A stretch of DNA of 64,000 bases from Lepus europaeus (Eukaryota; Chordata; Mammalia; Lagomorpha; Leporidae). Below, one piece after another: positions 1,021-46,521 of the stretch (position 1 is the stretch's first letter; every line of letters begins with the position of its first letter). The notes beneath the pieces were generated by a model that ran no database searches, had not been told where the DNA came from, and was given only the letters and a program-made list of their open reading frames with translations. The stretch covers positions 98,581,388-98,645,387 of the forward strand of contig NC_084828.1 of assembly GCF_033115175.1 (NCBI RefSeq), given 5' to 3'. Both the position numbers and the translations under genes were made by a program.

Positions 1021-1036
1021 AAATCCAAAAAAAATT

Positions 1037-1194
1037 GACACTATAGCCAAATGGACCTAACAGATACCTACAAAAATATCATCAACTTAAAGTTGCAGAA
1101 TACATATTCTTCCCACCTGTGCATGGAACCTCTCTAGGATTGACCACATGATAGGCCAGAAAACAAGTCTCAGCAATTTAAAATTAATCATATC
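1037..1194 (+). mobile_element. Old L1 ORF2 fragment, 5' part of split element (endonuclease region)
   Basis: The translation resembles L1 ORF2 endonuclease (IDHM-GxKTSLS-like, matching 58540-58690 of the younger copy). The fragment stops at a 14-bp direct repeat and its continuation lies at 6418, after a 5.2-kb younger insertion. It is degenerate and has no open frame. Confidence 0.85.
1181..1194 (+). repeat. Target-site duplication, left copy
   Basis: 'aaattaatcatatc' occurs here and again at 6404-6417, flanking the 1195-6403 insertion. The preceding TTTA|AAA context fits the L1 endonuclease preference for TT/AAAA. Confidence 0.9.
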
Positions 1195-2117
1195 GGAGAG
1201 AGCGGCAAGATGGCGGAATAGGCAGGGAGCACACTATTAGTCCGGGGGGAGAGAAAGTTTAATATAAGTGGAGATACTGCAGGGTCAAGGAAGAGTAGGG
1301 GATGAAACAGCAGAGGAAACTCTTCCGGAACTAGTGATTCACAGTGGACCTGCGTGGAGAGCGTGGGAGCCCAAGTTCGGGACACCAGCGGCAGACTCAA
1401 CACACCAGCGCTGGAACGCGAGGTGAGCCGAACCTCAATAGCCCGAGATACCAGCGGGCAAGCGGAAAGAGGAGGCTAGAGGGAACGAGGCTTGAAACTC
1501 CTTGGGGAAAAGTTCACCAGGCTAACTAGAAGAGAGATAGGAAAAAAATTAAAAAAGTGACCAATACGGACACAAGTTTCTCTCTCTCCGCTCACCTTTC
1601 AAAGGCGAGCAAGACAGAGCAGGCGCCATTTTGGACATACGTCATAAGCAGGGCGACCTCAGGTCTGCACCAGCCCTGAGCCCAGCAGAAAAACATGACT
1701 CTGGGGGGAGGGGTGAAATAACAGGAGATTAGCATCTAACTTGGCAACCCAGTGGGAGACTGCAGGAGAATTGGAGCCCACACTGAGGGCAGCAGAGATT
1801 CCCTGTGTGGTCCTTGGGAAAGAGCTTCCGATCTCTGGCTCCTGTGGGTATATCATTTGCCTGCTAACTACCTCCAATTACGTTCAGCTGTGCGGAATTA
1901 CTTCCCTTTTAAATCAAAAAAAGAAAGAGAGATTTACCACGCCTAACCTGGGAGTGTCATCCTTGACACACCCTCAACCCTGAGGAACCAAACACAGCTC
2001 TCAGGCCACACTCACCTCAAGCCTCTAAGGCTCCATCAAAAGCAGACAGTCCACTTAATATAGAGCCATAGCATAACAAGAAAAAAAACCACGGTGAAGA
2101 AACCAAATATCTCCAAC
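1195..2117 (+). promoter_or_regulatory. L1 5'UTR with internal promoter region
   Basis: The 5' end lies exactly at the target-site duplication and begins 'ggagagagcggcaagatggcgg', which includes a YY1-type AAGATGG core as in other mammalian L1 5' ends. The segment is GC-richer than its surroundings. Promoter activity is inferred from family knowledge. Confidence 0.6.
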
Positions 2118-3155
2118 ATGCCAAACAACAAACGCAAAAACTGAGGTAACAAGAACAAGGAAGACACTACGACGCCCCCAAATGAAAAAGACACCCCAAT
2201 TCAAGATTATGAAGATGATGAGATCGAAGAAATGCAAGAAGCGGATCTCAAAAAATTGATAAGAACATTAAGAAGTTCTCAAAAACAAATTATTGAACTA
2301 CAGAAATCCTTCATGGACAAGATAGAAAATCTCTCTTGTGAAAGTGAAATATTAAGGAGGAATCAAAATGAAATGAAACAACTAGTGGAACAAGAAATGG
2401 TGATAGTGACTAGAAATCATAATGAAATGAAGAACTCAATAGATCAAATGACAAACACATTAGAGAGCCTTAAAAACAGAATGGGTGAAGCAGAAGAGAG
2501 AATATCAGACTTAGAAGACAGAGAACAGGAAAGGAAACAGGCAAACCAAAGAAAAGAAGAAGAAATTAGAAATCTAAAAAATATTGTCGGGAATCTACAG
2601 GATACTATTAAAAAACCCACCATTCGGGTTCTAGGAGTTCCTGAAGGCATGGAGAGGGAGAAAGGATTAGAAGGCATTTTCAGTGAGATACTAGCAGAAA
2701 ATTTCCCAGGTTTGGAGAAGGACAGAGGCATGTTAGTACAGGAAGCTTATAGAACCCCTAATAAACATGACCAAAAGAGATCCTCACCACGACATGTTGT
2801 AATCAAACTCACCACAGTGAAACATAAAGAAAAGATCCTAAAAGGTGCAAGAGAGAAACGTCAGATCACTCTTAGAGGATCTCCAATTAGACTCACAGCA
2901 GACTTCTCATCAGAAACCCTACAAGCTAGAAGGGAATGGCGAGACATAGCCCAGGTACTAAGAGAGAAAAACTGCCAGCCCAGAATACTATATCCTGCAA
3001 AGCTCTCATTTGTGAATGAAGGTGAAATTAAGACTTTTCATAGCAAACAGAAACTGAAAGAATTTGTTGCCACTCATCCTGCCCTGCAAAAGATGCTTAA
3101 AGATGTCTTACACACAGAAACACAGAAACATGGTCACCAATATGAAAGAAGGTAA
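2118..3155 (+). CDS. L1 ORF1 protein (RNA-binding chaperone), nonsense codon near N-terminus
   Basis: ORF1p is the trimeric RNA-binding protein of the L1 ribonucleoprotein. The original ATG is at 2118, but codon 9 is TGA (2142-2144). From the in-frame Met at 2232 the frame is open for 307 residues. Counted from that Met, residues about 10-115 form a charged heptad-rich coiled coil, about 128-205 match the L1 RRM-like domain (start 'TIRVLGVPEG') and about 208-290 match the C-terminal domain (LRGSPIRLTADFS, YPAKLSF, NEGEIKTF). With the lost N-terminus the length would be about 345, close to other mammalian ORF1 proteins. Only one defect in more than 1 kb indicates a fairly recent insertion. Translation from the internal Met is possible but not shown. 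Confidence 0.85.
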
Positions 3156-4960
3156 AGGAAGGAAACCTCACAGCAAAAGATCACAGGAAGCTCAATTTCT
3201 CTTTGACATAGAATTAAACTCTGATGCTCTGTTAAAGCAATGTGTTAAAGTAATCTATTATGTTCTCTTGATGTCTGTTAAATTCTAATTGTTCAAAAAC
3301 AGCTGAATTTTTATTAAGAGCTATGGGTTATTTAAATATGTGCTTTTTTCAAAGATTTGAATAATCACCTTGTAACAATGATCAAATTTGGTCTATGTTA
3401 TGTCATGATTTTAAGAAATCTTATTTCAACCAGATATTTTGGATTTTGAGCCTTCTTGGCATTCTTGACAGGCATTCAAAAAATCAAAGTTTCAAACAAT
3501 CTGGTCTCTAAAATTTCCAGTAAATCCTGGACTTTGGTTTTTCCAGTTTGGGCCCAACTGAAAAAATCGAAGGACCTATGTCTCTCATCTTATAGAGACA
3601 CCAACTAATCAGGCTATTTGGATTATATTAGAAGTACTGTCAAGATGTGATGTGGTACCAAACTTTAAGTTTCTATAATGGAAAATGCTATTAATACAAA
3701 TGTTTGAGAATTAAAAAGTCTAAGGATCTTGTGTCACTAGACATGATAGTTATCTTAATGAGAAAGCCCCAGAGGCCTAAAGGGTTAAATACTTGTAAAA
3801 TCCTACAGGTGCTTTCAAAAATACTGTGAAGTAAGCAAGTGCCTCTTGTTGGTTGATGAGTTTATAATTTTAAACATGACGACTTAAAGTCTTTTGTCAT
3901 CCACAGTTATATATGATGTGCTGCTCATAAAACTAAAGCGTTGTTGGTTCTGTGTTTAGCTGTCCTCCTATAGGTTCCTATGGACTTTTTCCAGCCACTT
4001 CTATTGTATTCAGTACTTTGGGATGGCTCTGTAAACAGATGAAGCCAATAATGTATTAACAGTACCAACTGAGAGAAAGTATGGTTAACTGAGGTTACTA
4101 AAAACAAAAAGCAATTCAAATCAATTGGCAATCTACAAAAAGAGTTAAAGATTTTAAAAGCTATTATTAAAATTGCTATATTGGTCTACTATGCTATGTT
4201 ATATGTGTGTACATATTGTATGTCCACATGGGGAAATTTTATTAAGAGTTTTATTTTAAATGGCTTATAGATAAGATTGTCCATAAATTTAAGCTGCTAA
4301 AATCAATCAAAGATACATTTTAATTTGTGTGACCTGAATCTGTGTATCATATGTTTTAGACTTGTTGGTAGAAAGAAACTAAAAACATTTTAGATGGTTG
4401 TGCTTAAGTTTACTGGCTAAACAAACTACACCATGTTAGATATTTAAGAGGTGTTTTCAAATACATGATTCTTAAAATATATAGAAGGCATTGGACCTTC
4501 TGGTAAATGTTTTCTTAAGTTGTTATCTAATGGTTGAAACGGTTTGCTAAGTATTCATGTAATATTGCTATTATCAGCAAGCGATCTAGGACTTGCTCCC
4601 TCACTTCTCTATTCTAAGCCCAACTTGTTCTTTCATTTCTCTATTCTCTGCAAGGTAGGAAACTAATTCTATTATGAAGGAATCTGTAGGACACACAATT
4701 TAATTTTTAGACCTTATAAAAGAGATGGCTAACATTTTTCTGCAATAGCATAGCCAAAATAAGTACTTAAATAATAATCTCATAGCTAGATTCACTTCGC
4801 CATCAGCAAAGTATACAGTAAGTAGAAAAAACCTCCCTTTCAGACCAAAGGGGAAGAAAGTTTTAAAGTGAGAATATAATTTTCCTCATGGGCATTGTCT
4901 ACCTTAGAAAAAGTACTACAGAACATGCCTGTGACTAGAGACTTGTAGTTCAGGCCACCG
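3156..4960 (+). other. Unidentified AT-rich spacer in place of L1 ORF2
   Basis: The first 100-150 bases after the ORF1 stop may still be L1 inter-ORF sequence. The rest is AT-rich with short chance ORFs only and has no L1 ORF2 motif. I could not place it. Because it leads into the retrovirus-like stretch at 4960-5440, it may be the non-coding or decayed 5' part of an endogenous retrovirus, but I saw no convincing LTR or primer-binding site. Confidence 0.4.
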
Positions 4961-5440
4961 AAGATTAGAGATGGGACACGGGCACTCCCTTGACTTGCAT
5001 CCTCTGGTCTGCTTGAACACAAACCAGGAGGAAAAGAAAGCTAGGCATCAGAAGCAATGGGTGGCAGGCCTATTAATGGCTGATCTGTACAGTGATCTGC
5101 CCTCAAGGAGACCCAACAGGCCAGTCCACTGCAGTGGCTTTCAATGTGGTAAGCCTGGGCTTCAGCAGAAGTCAGCTTGTGAAGAGCCCTGGCAGCTCTG
5201 CCAAGAGTTGGATCACTGGAAATGGACCTGCTCTGGAGTCGAAGGATGCCCAGGTCAGAGCCACAGATCTTATTGGCTCTAAGCTGAAAAGCCCCTCACT
5301 CAGCCCAACTTACAAAGTGACCACTGCAGCTGAGGGGATGGTCAAGTAGGGTCAGCAACATTGCAAACAGAACTGTAAATTTCTTGTTAGAGATGCCCCC
5401 TGTCTTTACCTGGCCAGCTCTCCTCCCAGGCCAGCCAAGT
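4960..5440 (+). pseudogene. Decayed retrovirus-like gag nucleocapsid to protease segment
   Basis: The frame starting at 4971 (103 residues) shows a basic run, then two zinc-knuckle-like units. In the first the residue pattern keeps Cys59 (5145) and GKPG, but the expected first Cys and the His are replaced. The second fits C-x2-C-x4-H-x4-C with Cys77 (5199), His82 (5214) and Cys87 (5229), its first Cys being Trp74. A protease-like start (NFLL-type) follows in a shifted frame near 5375. Tandem knuckles followed by protease fit ERV gag-pro. The segment is broken by substitutions, frameshifts and stops and encodes nothing functional. Family assignment by eye only. Confidence 0.5.
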
Positions 5441-5855
5441 AATGAAAGTCAACAGAGTGCCTTCCCCTAGGAGGTTCACACCTCCCTTAGGATATACCCC
5501 ATGTGAAGAGATAGATAGGTCTGGGCCTCTTAACTTACAAGGCCTAAAGCCCACCAGATTATTATCAAGCCCATTCTATCAGGTTCTATTTGCCTCTCAA
5601 TCAGAAAAATTACTTGTAGCTTAGACAGCACCTTTCTTAGCTCCTCTAATAATGACTCTGTCCTTTGTTCTAGGCCCTGTCTAGCGTACTTGGGCCTCAT
5701 TCCTTTGTAATCATAACCTCTACTCTACCACCAATGGCTCTACTCCCAACCTGTGTGTACTGATGGTCCTCTTCCCCACTTCATGCTGTATAATTGTTCA
5801 AACCTGGTAAATGCCACTCTTAGGATCATTGGTTACTATCCTCACTCTGTCTTTT
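5440..5855 (+). other. Unassigned segment before the L1 3'UTR of the chimera
   Basis: This short stretch has one 60-codon frame (5442-5624) and no L1 similarity. It may be further retrovirus-derived sequence, but I could not confirm this. L1 3'UTR similarity begins near 5855 ('gaccttgtctaaat'). Confidence 0.3.
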
Positions 5856-6306
5856 ATGACCTTGTCTAAATATGATCAGAGTCAGCAAACTTGGAAGGCT
5901 TCCATAGCCTTGGCAACTCATGACGACAGCCTAGGGTGGTTACTGGCGCCATAAACTAGAGTGTCAATTTGTTGGGTCAACAACAGGAGCCACTGTGCAC
6001 TTGCTCCTCATGTGGGATCTCTGTCCTTAATGTGCTGTCCATTGTGATTTAATGCTATAACTAGTACTCAAACAGTATGTTTCACTTTGTGTTTCTATGT
6101 GGATGCAAACTGTTGAAATCTTTATACTAAATTGATCTTCTGTATATAAAGAGAATTGAAAATGAATCTTGATGCAAATGGAAGGGGAGAGGGAGCGGGA
6201 GAGGGGAGGGTTGCGGGTGGGAGGGAAGTTATGGGAGGGGGAAGCCATTGTAATCCATAAGCTGTACACTGGAAATTTATATTCATTAAATAAAAGTTTA
6301 AAAAAA
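5856..6306 (+). mobile_element. L1 3'UTR of the chimera, first polyadenylation site
   Basis: It aligns by eye with the 3'UTRs at 17180-17640 and 62690-63136, including a G-rich block at 6180-6245, AATAAA at 6289-6294 and a short A-run at 6300-6306. It carries variant bases 'gatgcaaatggaagg' and 'attcattaaat', shared only with the copy at 46060. Confidence 0.85.
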
Positions 6307-6403
6307 TTTCTTTTATTTGCTATGGATCTTTTCTACTACCTATTATGTTTAAACATTTTGTAGCATGTTAAATAATAAAAGCATGATTGCTGTTTGAAAA
6401 AAA
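6307..6403 (+). other. L1 3' transduction with second poly(A) signal and tail
   Basis: 90 bp of unrelated sequence (6307-6396) lies between the L1 A-run and the true insertion tail. It ends with AATAAA at 6374-6379, 17 nt before a poly(A) tract starting at 6397, directly followed by the target-site duplication. This is the classical signature of read-through past a weak L1 polyadenylation site. Confidence 0.85.
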
Positions 6404-6417
6404 AAATTAATCATATC
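6404..6417 (+). repeat. Target-site duplication, right copy
   Basis: Identical to 1181-1194; its first bases overlap the poly(A) tail. Confidence 0.9.
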
Positions 6418-6612
6418 ATGCATCTTCTCAGACCACAATGCAATCAAGCTGGAAATCATCAACTCAGGAATTTCTAGAACATATGCAAACACACAGAGAC
6501 TGAACAACATGCTCCTGAATAAACTTTGGGTCATTGAAGAAATCAAAAGAAAATTTAAAAAATTTCTGGAAAAAAATGAAGATGACAATAAAATATATCA
6601 AAACTTTTGGAA

Positions 6613-45919: not shown

Positions 45920-46521
45920 ATATAGAGAAGGAGTATTTGATCTTAAGACGAGACTACCCTGGATTACATGGGTGGGCTCCAAATGCCCTCACAAGTGTCC
46001 TTATAAAATAAAAGCACAGGAAGATTTAACATGAAGACACACATAGAAAAAGGCAATGTAAACTGTTGAAATCTTTACTTAATATATACTAAACTGATCT
46101 TCTGTACATAAAGAGAATTGAAAATGAATGTTGATGCAAATGGAAGGGGAGAGGGAGCGGGAAAGGGGAGGGTTGTGGGTGGGAGGGAAGTTATGGGGGT
46201 GGGGGGAAGCCATTGTAATCCATAAGCTGTACTTTGGAAATTTATATTCATTAAATACAAGTTTAAAAAAAAAAAGAAAAAGGCAATGTGAAGACGTTGG
46301 CAGAGATGGGAACCATGAAGCCACAATCCCAAGAATGCCAAGACAGGCACCAGAAGCTGGAAGAGAAAAGGAATAATTCACCCTAGAGCTCCCTAAAAAT
46401 GTGGCTCTGCAGGATTTCAGACATTTAGCCCTCACTCAAACTGTGAGAGAATCAATTTCTATTTTTTTAAACTACCAGATTGTTGTAATTTGTAACAGCA
46501 GCCATAGGAATCAAATACATT
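45920..46521 (+). mobile_element. MLT1-type MaLR LTR, split by a short L1
   Basis: 'gtgggctccaaatgccctcac', 'gtgtccttataaaat', then after the L1 'gaccacaatcc..gaatgcc', 'actgtgagagaatcaatttc' and 'gtaatttgtaacagcagcc' match MLT1 in order. Confidence 0.75.
46060..46274 (+). mobile_element. Short L1 3' end of the chimera's 3'UTR variant
   Basis: 15-bp duplication 'agaaaaaggcaatgt' (46045-46059 and 46275-46289). Shares 'gatgcaaatggaagg' and 'attcattaaata' with 6166-6295, unlike the 3'UTRs at 17511, 27716, 35488 and 63010. Confidence 0.95.

What the first reader, a model, noticed from the sequence alone, without database searches (positions are those of the whole stretch)
1195..6403. ORF2-less L1 chimera carrying a retrovirus-like segment, inserted as one unit
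The sequence shows an L1 5' end and ORF1, no ORF2, about 2.7 kb of non-L1 sequence with a gag-like double zinc knuckle, then an L1 3'UTR, all inside one 14-bp target-site duplication with a poly(A) tail. It must therefore have been a single transcript. ORF1-only half-L1 (HAL1) elements are known from other mammals and depend on ORF2p in trans. A lagomorph version whose ORF2 is replaced by ERV-derived DNA would be a distinct composite retrotransposon, and the nearly open ORF1 suggests recent activity. I cannot exclude that it is already catalogued under a repeat name.
Basis: partly seen in the sequence, partly recalled or inferred. Interest (0 to 1): 0.88.

Follow-up and report, generated by a model that had tools for sequence, protein, structure and literature searches.

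The report
ORF2-less L1 parasite carrying foreign DNA
This is one copy of a large, young family of jumping genes in a rabbit-like animal that kept one of the two L1 genes, swapped the copying-enzyme gene for 2.7 kb of unrelated DNA, and appears to spread by borrowing that enzyme from ordinary L1 elements.

Summary
In detail: L1 5' end, ORF1, a non-L1 body, L1 3' end and poly(A) inside one target-site duplication. It is no lone accident. In the held assembly (G000) the ORF1-body joint occurs 7,917 times and the body-3'UTR joint 17,038 times; marks along the body occur 7,090, 10,203 and 16,476 times from 5' to 3' (reversed controls 0), the slope expected from L1-type 5' truncation. Of 39 other copies fetched, 37 span the whole element; duplications were found in 33 of 38 copies tested. 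Mean pairwise difference is 2.1%, the closest pair 0.16%. ORF1 (345 codons) is intact in 27 of 39 copies read; the window's is stopped at codon 9. ORF2 is missing; L1s with long open ORF2 frames exist in the same genome as possible helpers. Best reading: a very successful half-L1 (HAL1)-type L1 satellite with ORF2 replaced by foreign DNA. Retroviral origin of the body is NOT established: one decayed zinc knuckle, no Pfam, PDB or protein match in the pieces tried, no LTR pair. The window copy's last 96 bp are not L1 and match one other locus: 3' transduction or template switch. Repbase and Dfam could not be searched.

The parts
1180..1194 (+). left target-site duplication, 15 bp, preceded by TT and starting AAAA (L1 endonuclease-like site)
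1195..2117 (+). L1 5'UTR
   Evidence: spanned by 37 of 39 fetched copies
2118..3155 (+). L1 ORF1, 345 codons; stop at codon 9 in this copy; intact in 27 of 39 copies read
3156..3195 (+). L1 spacer after ORF1, up to the 5' joint
   Evidence: 40-mer 3174-3213 across the joint counted
3196..5854 (+). foreign body replacing ORF2, 2,659 bp; longest stop-to-stop frame on its + strand 115 codons; no LTR pair; GC 31-35% up to about 4945, 43-52% after about 4700
   Evidence: genome counts
3306..4497 (+). interval inside which a short structural class lacks about 553 bp
5130..5280 (+). gag-nucleocapsid-like stretch, decayed; one knuckle with 3 of 4 ligands at 5190
5855..6306 (+). L1 3'UTR with poly(A) signal; 41-mer 5841-5881 across the 3' joint counted
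6307..6402 (+). extra non-L1 tail with its own poly(A) signal and poly(A); one other place in the genome (C21) at 100%
6403..6417 (+). right target-site duplication

Best explanation
The element is one member of a young, high-copy, non-autonomous L1 satellite of the half-L1 (HAL1) kind. Shown: it keeps an L1 5'UTR, ORF1 and L1 3'UTR, lacks ORF2, carries about 2.7 kb (about 2.1 kb in a short class) of foreign DNA between ORF1 and the 3'UTR, and inserts as a unit with poly(A) and target-site duplications of L1 type. Inferred: RNA polymerase II transcribes it from the L1 5'UTR promoter; ORF1p is made from intact copies and coats the RNA, probably in cis; ORF2p is supplied in trans by autonomous L1s of the same genome; ORF2p nicks TT/AAAA-like sites and reverse transcribes from the poly(A), giving 5'-truncated and full-length copies. 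The foreign body is most simply an old passenger left by an event that removed ORF2 from an ancestral L1. In the window's copy the RNA ended in extra sequence also found on C21, by 3' transduction from a source not seen in this assembly, or by template switching.
For: Genome counts: 40-mer across the 5' joint 7,917; 41-mer across the 3' joint 17,038; body marks 7,090, 10,203, 16,476; reversed-pattern controls 0 in each. 40 of 40 copies in hand carry the 5' joint and 39 of 40 the 3' joint. 37 of 39 fetched copies span 1207 or before to 6304 or after, 33 of them as one aligned piece. Target-site duplication of at least 9 bp in 33 of 38 copies with both ends, 28 of these at least 13 bp; swapped-flank control 98 of 1406 at least 9 bp, 10 of them at least 13 bp. 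Pairwise difference mean 2.1%, minimum 0.16%, over 661 pairs. ORF1 intact in 27 of 39. The top P0016 match, fetched as a presumed autonomous L1, was itself a composite (L048). Autonomous L1s: of 150 RT matches scored, 27 lie in open frames of 1274 and 32 of 1300 codons by my hand count. Composite ORF1s (24 of the 27 intact ones plus the window) form one clade (100/99) beside rabbit ORF1ps. Last 105 ORF1 codons against one autonomous L1: 18 synonymous changes, 6 nonsynonymous codons.
Against: No expression or mobility data. Within the family, (nonsynonymous plus stop):synonymous counts do not differ significantly between singleton and shared variants (124:54 against 19:14, p = 0.22; non-CpG p = 1.0), so selection on ORF1 inside the composite lineage is not shown; the low ratio could come from the autonomous branch. 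The 39 copies were the best matches to one 245-bp probe, lean towards young copies and hold none of the short class. In 5 of 38 copies no duplication was found, and L025, L034 and L042 are doubtful by position. Cis preference of ORF1p and trans supply of ORF2p are drawn from known L1 biology.
Confidence: 0.9

Rival explanations
1. Secondary insertion: an ordinary full-length L1 lost ORF2 and received an ERV fragment after insertion at this one locus.
For: Would explain a single chimera with one duplication.
Against: Thousands of copies with the same two joints; in those fetched, different flanks.
Confidence: 0.01
2. ORF1 is only a passenger: the RNA is mobilised like an SVA or processed pseudogene and ORF1p from this element is not needed.
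For: Within-family selection on ORF1 not significant; 27 of 39 intact is about what neutral decay at roughly 1% per copy would leave (my estimate).
Against: ORF1 has stayed open in the lineage that made the copies; 1 stop among 61 shared variants, none among the 33 shared by three or more (weak); few amino-acid changes against an autonomous L1.
Confidence: 0.25
3. The body is a retroviral gag-pro fragment captured when an ERV inserted in an L1.
For: Knuckle-like residues at 5130-5280 and, from recall only, protease-like residues near 5390-5500; the GC content changes near 4700-4950, so the 3' part may have its own origin.
Against: No Pfam match at E up to 10 for six pieces, no relevant PDB match for two pieces (best 0.33, unrelated enzymes), no protein candidate for one piece among proteins of like length, no LTR pair, one other knuckle locus is not alike, and no long frame in the AT-rich first 1.7 kb.
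Confidence: 0.5
4. The family is already catalogued under a lagomorph L1 or HAL1 repeat name.
For: Its abundance means a de novo repeat library should contain it; HAL1s arose several times in mammals (PMC5753468, passages).
Against: Nothing on it in the listings of the paper searches made, which cover open-licence papers only; the key HAL1 paper (Bao and Jurka 2010) is not held.
Confidence: 0.4

Closest known systems
HAL1 (half-L1) elements
   Same: L1-derived, ORF1 only, poly(A), target-site duplications, said to depend on RT/EN of full-length L1 (PMC5322556 and PMC5753468, passages)
   Different: This family carries 2.7 kb of foreign DNA in place of ORF2, is young, and has 17,038 matches of its 3' joint in one genome, against nearly 2,100 HAL1 copies given for human in PMC5322556. 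Whether other HAL1s carry foreign bodies I could not check (Bao and Jurka 2010 not held).
SVA and LAVA composites of hominoids
   Same: Composite non-autonomous elements mobilised in trans by L1; SVA holds a SINE-R domain akin to HERV-K env and LTR (PMC4859970 passages; PMC7353768 abstract)
   Different: SVA is described as non-coding; this element keeps an L1 5'UTR and an ORF1 that is intact in 27 of 39 copies read, and has no VNTR.
Autonomous leporid L1
   Same: ORF1 end and spacer 92% over 357 bases in one copy; 3'UTR 84% over 312 aligned columns in two copies
   Different: ORF2 absent; the 3'UTR between 5855 and 6007 follows the older L1 type seen elsewhere in the window, not the two autonomous copies sampled.

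Membership tests
HAL1 (half-L1) | L1 ORF1 present and intact in many copies | tested here: met
   27 of 39
HAL1 (half-L1) | ORF2 absent | tested here: met
   no ORF2 frame; the joint lies before the ORF2 start
HAL1 (half-L1) | poly(A) and L1-type target-site duplication | tested here: met
HAL1 (half-L1) | multi-copy family amplified as such | tested here: met
HAL1 (half-L1) | mobilised by ORF2p in trans | not testable with these tools
   long open ORF2 frames exist in the same genome; no mobility data
Endogenous retrovirus fragment | LTR pair or significant retroviral protein match | tested here: not met
   on pieces only
Endogenous retrovirus fragment | gag nucleocapsid double knuckle | tested here: inconclusive
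   one site with 3 of 4 ligands, the other out of register
SVA-like composite | VNTR and no coding capacity | tested here: not met
   one short 21-bp-period array (1.9 copies, in ORF1) only; intact ORF1 in copies

The most novel reading that the evidence does not exclude
A coding L1 satellite that has become a major young L1-type lineage of its host: it kept ORF1 under selection for its own RNA, dropped ORF2, and uses the foreign body as a functional RNA module (stability, packaging or ORF2p recruitment), competing with its autonomous helper much as a defective interfering genome does.
Probability: 0.2. Interest if true: 0.8.

Novelty: new variant of a known kind. Interest (0 to 1): 0.62.

Why it matters
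The HAL1s I know of (recall) are mostly fossils. A young family with many intact ORF1 copies, beside L1s with long open ORF2 frames, gives a natural system for asking whether ORF1p in cis lets an RNA win ORF2p from its owner, and how far satellites can burden or restrain L1. It also shows that the whole of ORF2 can be exchanged for unrelated DNA without stopping amplification.

Tried and rejected
ERV identity: Pfam, PDB and protein search on pieces gave nothing relevant. Rfam gave one match below its threshold, a CPEB3-ribozyme-like stretch at 5145-5220 (17.2 bits against 35, E 0.73), taken as chance. A degenerate knuckle pattern gave 7 places; one read (L053) was a composite copy with one changed base, another (L052) was a different knuckle-like locus without similarity above shuffles (score 27, shuffle maximum 36.5); the other five were not read. 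Viral contigs: 32 stretches matched a pattern, none a relative; none matched a body 25-mer. A source element for the extra tail: C21 holds the 87 bases at 100%, but a longer query matched there only from window 6303 on, so no close composite 3' end adjoins it in this assembly; its upstream letters could not be read. Species from papers: none found.
Full report
Observation. The window holds, on the + strand, a unit from 1195 to 6402 between two 15-bp copies of one target-site duplication (1180-1194 and 6403-6417). It starts as an L1, carries ORF1 at 2118-3155 (Pfam L1 RBD-like and dsRBD-like domains), then 2.66 kb that is not L1, then an L1 3'UTR: of eight matches of other L1 copies in the window to this end, five begin at 5854-5855. 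In this copy ORF1 is stopped at codon 9 and open afterwards. The L1-derived part ends at 6306; the last 96 bases are something else.

Is it a family? Yes. The genome in which the window lies (G000, 2.93 Gb) was searched with 3156-3400: 87 candidates, 40 scored, all 40 at 99-100% identity over at least 243 of 245 bases. The 39 other than the window's own were fetched. Of these, 37 match the window's element from 1207 or before to 6304 or after, 33 in one piece and 4 in two pieces because of internal gaps or insertions; L035 starts at 2321 and L019 covers only 1939-4194, ending there in a run of A. In 38 copies with both ends (the window included) a target-site duplication of at least 9 bp was found in 33; L025, L034 and L042 are doubtful by position, and 5 have none. 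Swapped flanks gave 98 of 1406. The 5' joint is in 40 of 40 and the 3' joint in 39 of 40 copies in hand, the window included.

Copy number. Pattern counts over the whole genome with 2-3 mismatches allowed: joint of ORF1 spacer and body 7,917; body at 3273, 7,090; at 4498, 10,203; at 5708, 16,476; joint of body and L1 3'UTR 17,038; reversed controls 0 in each. So the body's two ends occur about as often as the two L1 joints: it is carried by L1 ends, not found loose. A mark at 3637 counts 4,585; its window version is rare among the copies in hand (neighbouring 33-mers exact in 3 of 40), and it lies in the interval where the short class has a gap. The rise towards the 3' end is the signature of 5' truncation in L1-type reverse transcription. 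A rough sum gives about 30 Mb, near 1% of the genome (inference).

Structural classes. Pairing exact places on C1 (83 of the 100 listed starts typed in), the start-to-mid distance is close to the window's 1225 in 28 of 43 pairs (1204-1227) and 670-691 in 10, with five others; 40 of 83 starts had no exact mid partner. A short class thus lacks about 553 bp inside 3306-4497; start-to-end distances agree. It is not among the fetched copies.

Age and ORF1. Pairwise difference over the aligned pieces is 2.1% on average (1.7% outside CpG-bearing columns), 0.16% for the closest pair; the window's nearest relative in the sample differs by 1.9%. ORF1 is intact in 27 of 39 copies read (38 fetched and the window; L035 not covered). 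Variant counts (nonsynonymous plus stop: synonymous) are 124:54 for singletons, 17:11 for those shared by two and 19:14 for those shared by three or more, a non-significant difference (singletons against three or more, p = 0.22; outside CpG p = 1.0). Selection on ORF1 within the family is therefore not shown.

Helpers and parent. An RT-domain search scored 150 of 34,329 candidates; by hand count 27 of the 150 lie in open frames of 1274 codons and 32 in frames of 1300. In one copy ORF1 is followed by the same spacer and then by the start of ORF2; identity to the composite is 92% over 357 bases and stops at window 3195. Over the last 105 ORF1 codons there are 18 synonymous changes and 6 nonsynonymous codons, but which branch they fell on is unknown. 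The 3'UTRs of two autonomous copies match the composite over 312 columns at 84%. The composite's 3'UTR from 5855 on resembles older L1s in the window (82-87% for the four best matches). The composite thus seems to have branched from an L1 lineage that differs from both sampled autonomous copies. When a rabbit ORF1p (P0016) was used to look for autonomous L1s, 118 of 68,503 candidates were scored; the best match (L048) was a composite, and of the six matches on C1 four lie at the expected distance from a composite mark (listed places; those lists show only exact matches and are cut at 100, so the other two are undecided).

Species. Named relatives of ORF1p are rabbit proteins at up to 92% identity. 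That P0016 reaches only 92% here, and that 25 composite ORF1s form their own clade beside the rabbit set (bootstrap not fully settled), suggests a leporid other than Oryctolagus.

The foreign body. Its longest stop-to-stop frame on the + strand has 115 codons; there is no LTR pair, and the pieces tried gave no Pfam, relevant PDB or protein match. GC is 31-35% over about the first 1.7 kb and 43-52% after, so it may have two origins. One knuckle-like site retains three of four ligands; the first is out of register. Residues near 5390-5500 look protease-like to me from recall. Retroviral origin is possible, not shown.

The extra tail. The 87 bases at 6308-6394 occur once more in the genome, on C21, at 100%. 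With a longer query the C21 match begins at window 6303, in an A-run, so no close composite 3' end adjoins it in this assembly. Either the source copy is missing from the assembled haplotype, which would mean a polymorphic or lost source, or ORF2p switched templates.

Literature. Passages read say that HAL1s encode ORF1 only, arose several times, number nearly 2,100 in human and depend on full-length L1 (PMC5753468, PMC5322556; PMC4161310 calls the last likely). The founding HAL1 paper is not held. Of a Tibetan hare genome paper passages were read: LINEs are its largest repeat class, and 'HAL1' does not occur in the text (PMC10858874). SVA and LAVA were compared from passages and an abstract. 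In the listings of searches I saw no paper describing this element; they cover open-licence papers only.

Verdict. A real, abundant, young composite of the HAL1 kind with a foreign body in place of ORF2: a new variant of a known kind, unless a repeat library already lists it.

Noticed in passing
window 6307-6402: Extra non-L1 tail with its own poly(A) signal; its only other place found is C21:71164377-71164468 at 100%, with no close composite 3' end beside it in this assembly.
   Followed up: partly
window 46056-46271: A 5'-truncated L1 3' end with a target-site duplication by eye, 89.8% to the composite's 3'UTR and 87% to an autonomous one; its lineage is unclear.
   Followed up: partly
L019, about 3739 after orientation: A composite copy that stops in the foreign body at window position 4194, followed by a run of A: premature polyadenylation or internal priming.
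   Followed up: no
G000 C1, e.g. 2944573 to 2946453: Short structural class lacking about 553 bp of the body; may be ancestral or derived.
   Followed up: partly
window 5145-5220: Full-length but below-threshold match to the CPEB3 ribozyme model (17.2 bits against 35, E 0.73); probably chance.
   Followed up: no
window 3196-5854: GC content steps from 31-35% to 43-52% near 4700-4950: the body may be two pieces.
   Followed up: no
L050 and L051: The autonomous L1 3'UTR seems to contain a partial internal duplication (two stretches match the same composite region).
   Followed up: no
window 1021-1179 and 6418-6600: The element seems to sit inside an older L1 ORF2 fragment (reading, from recall of L1 ORF2).
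   Followed up: no
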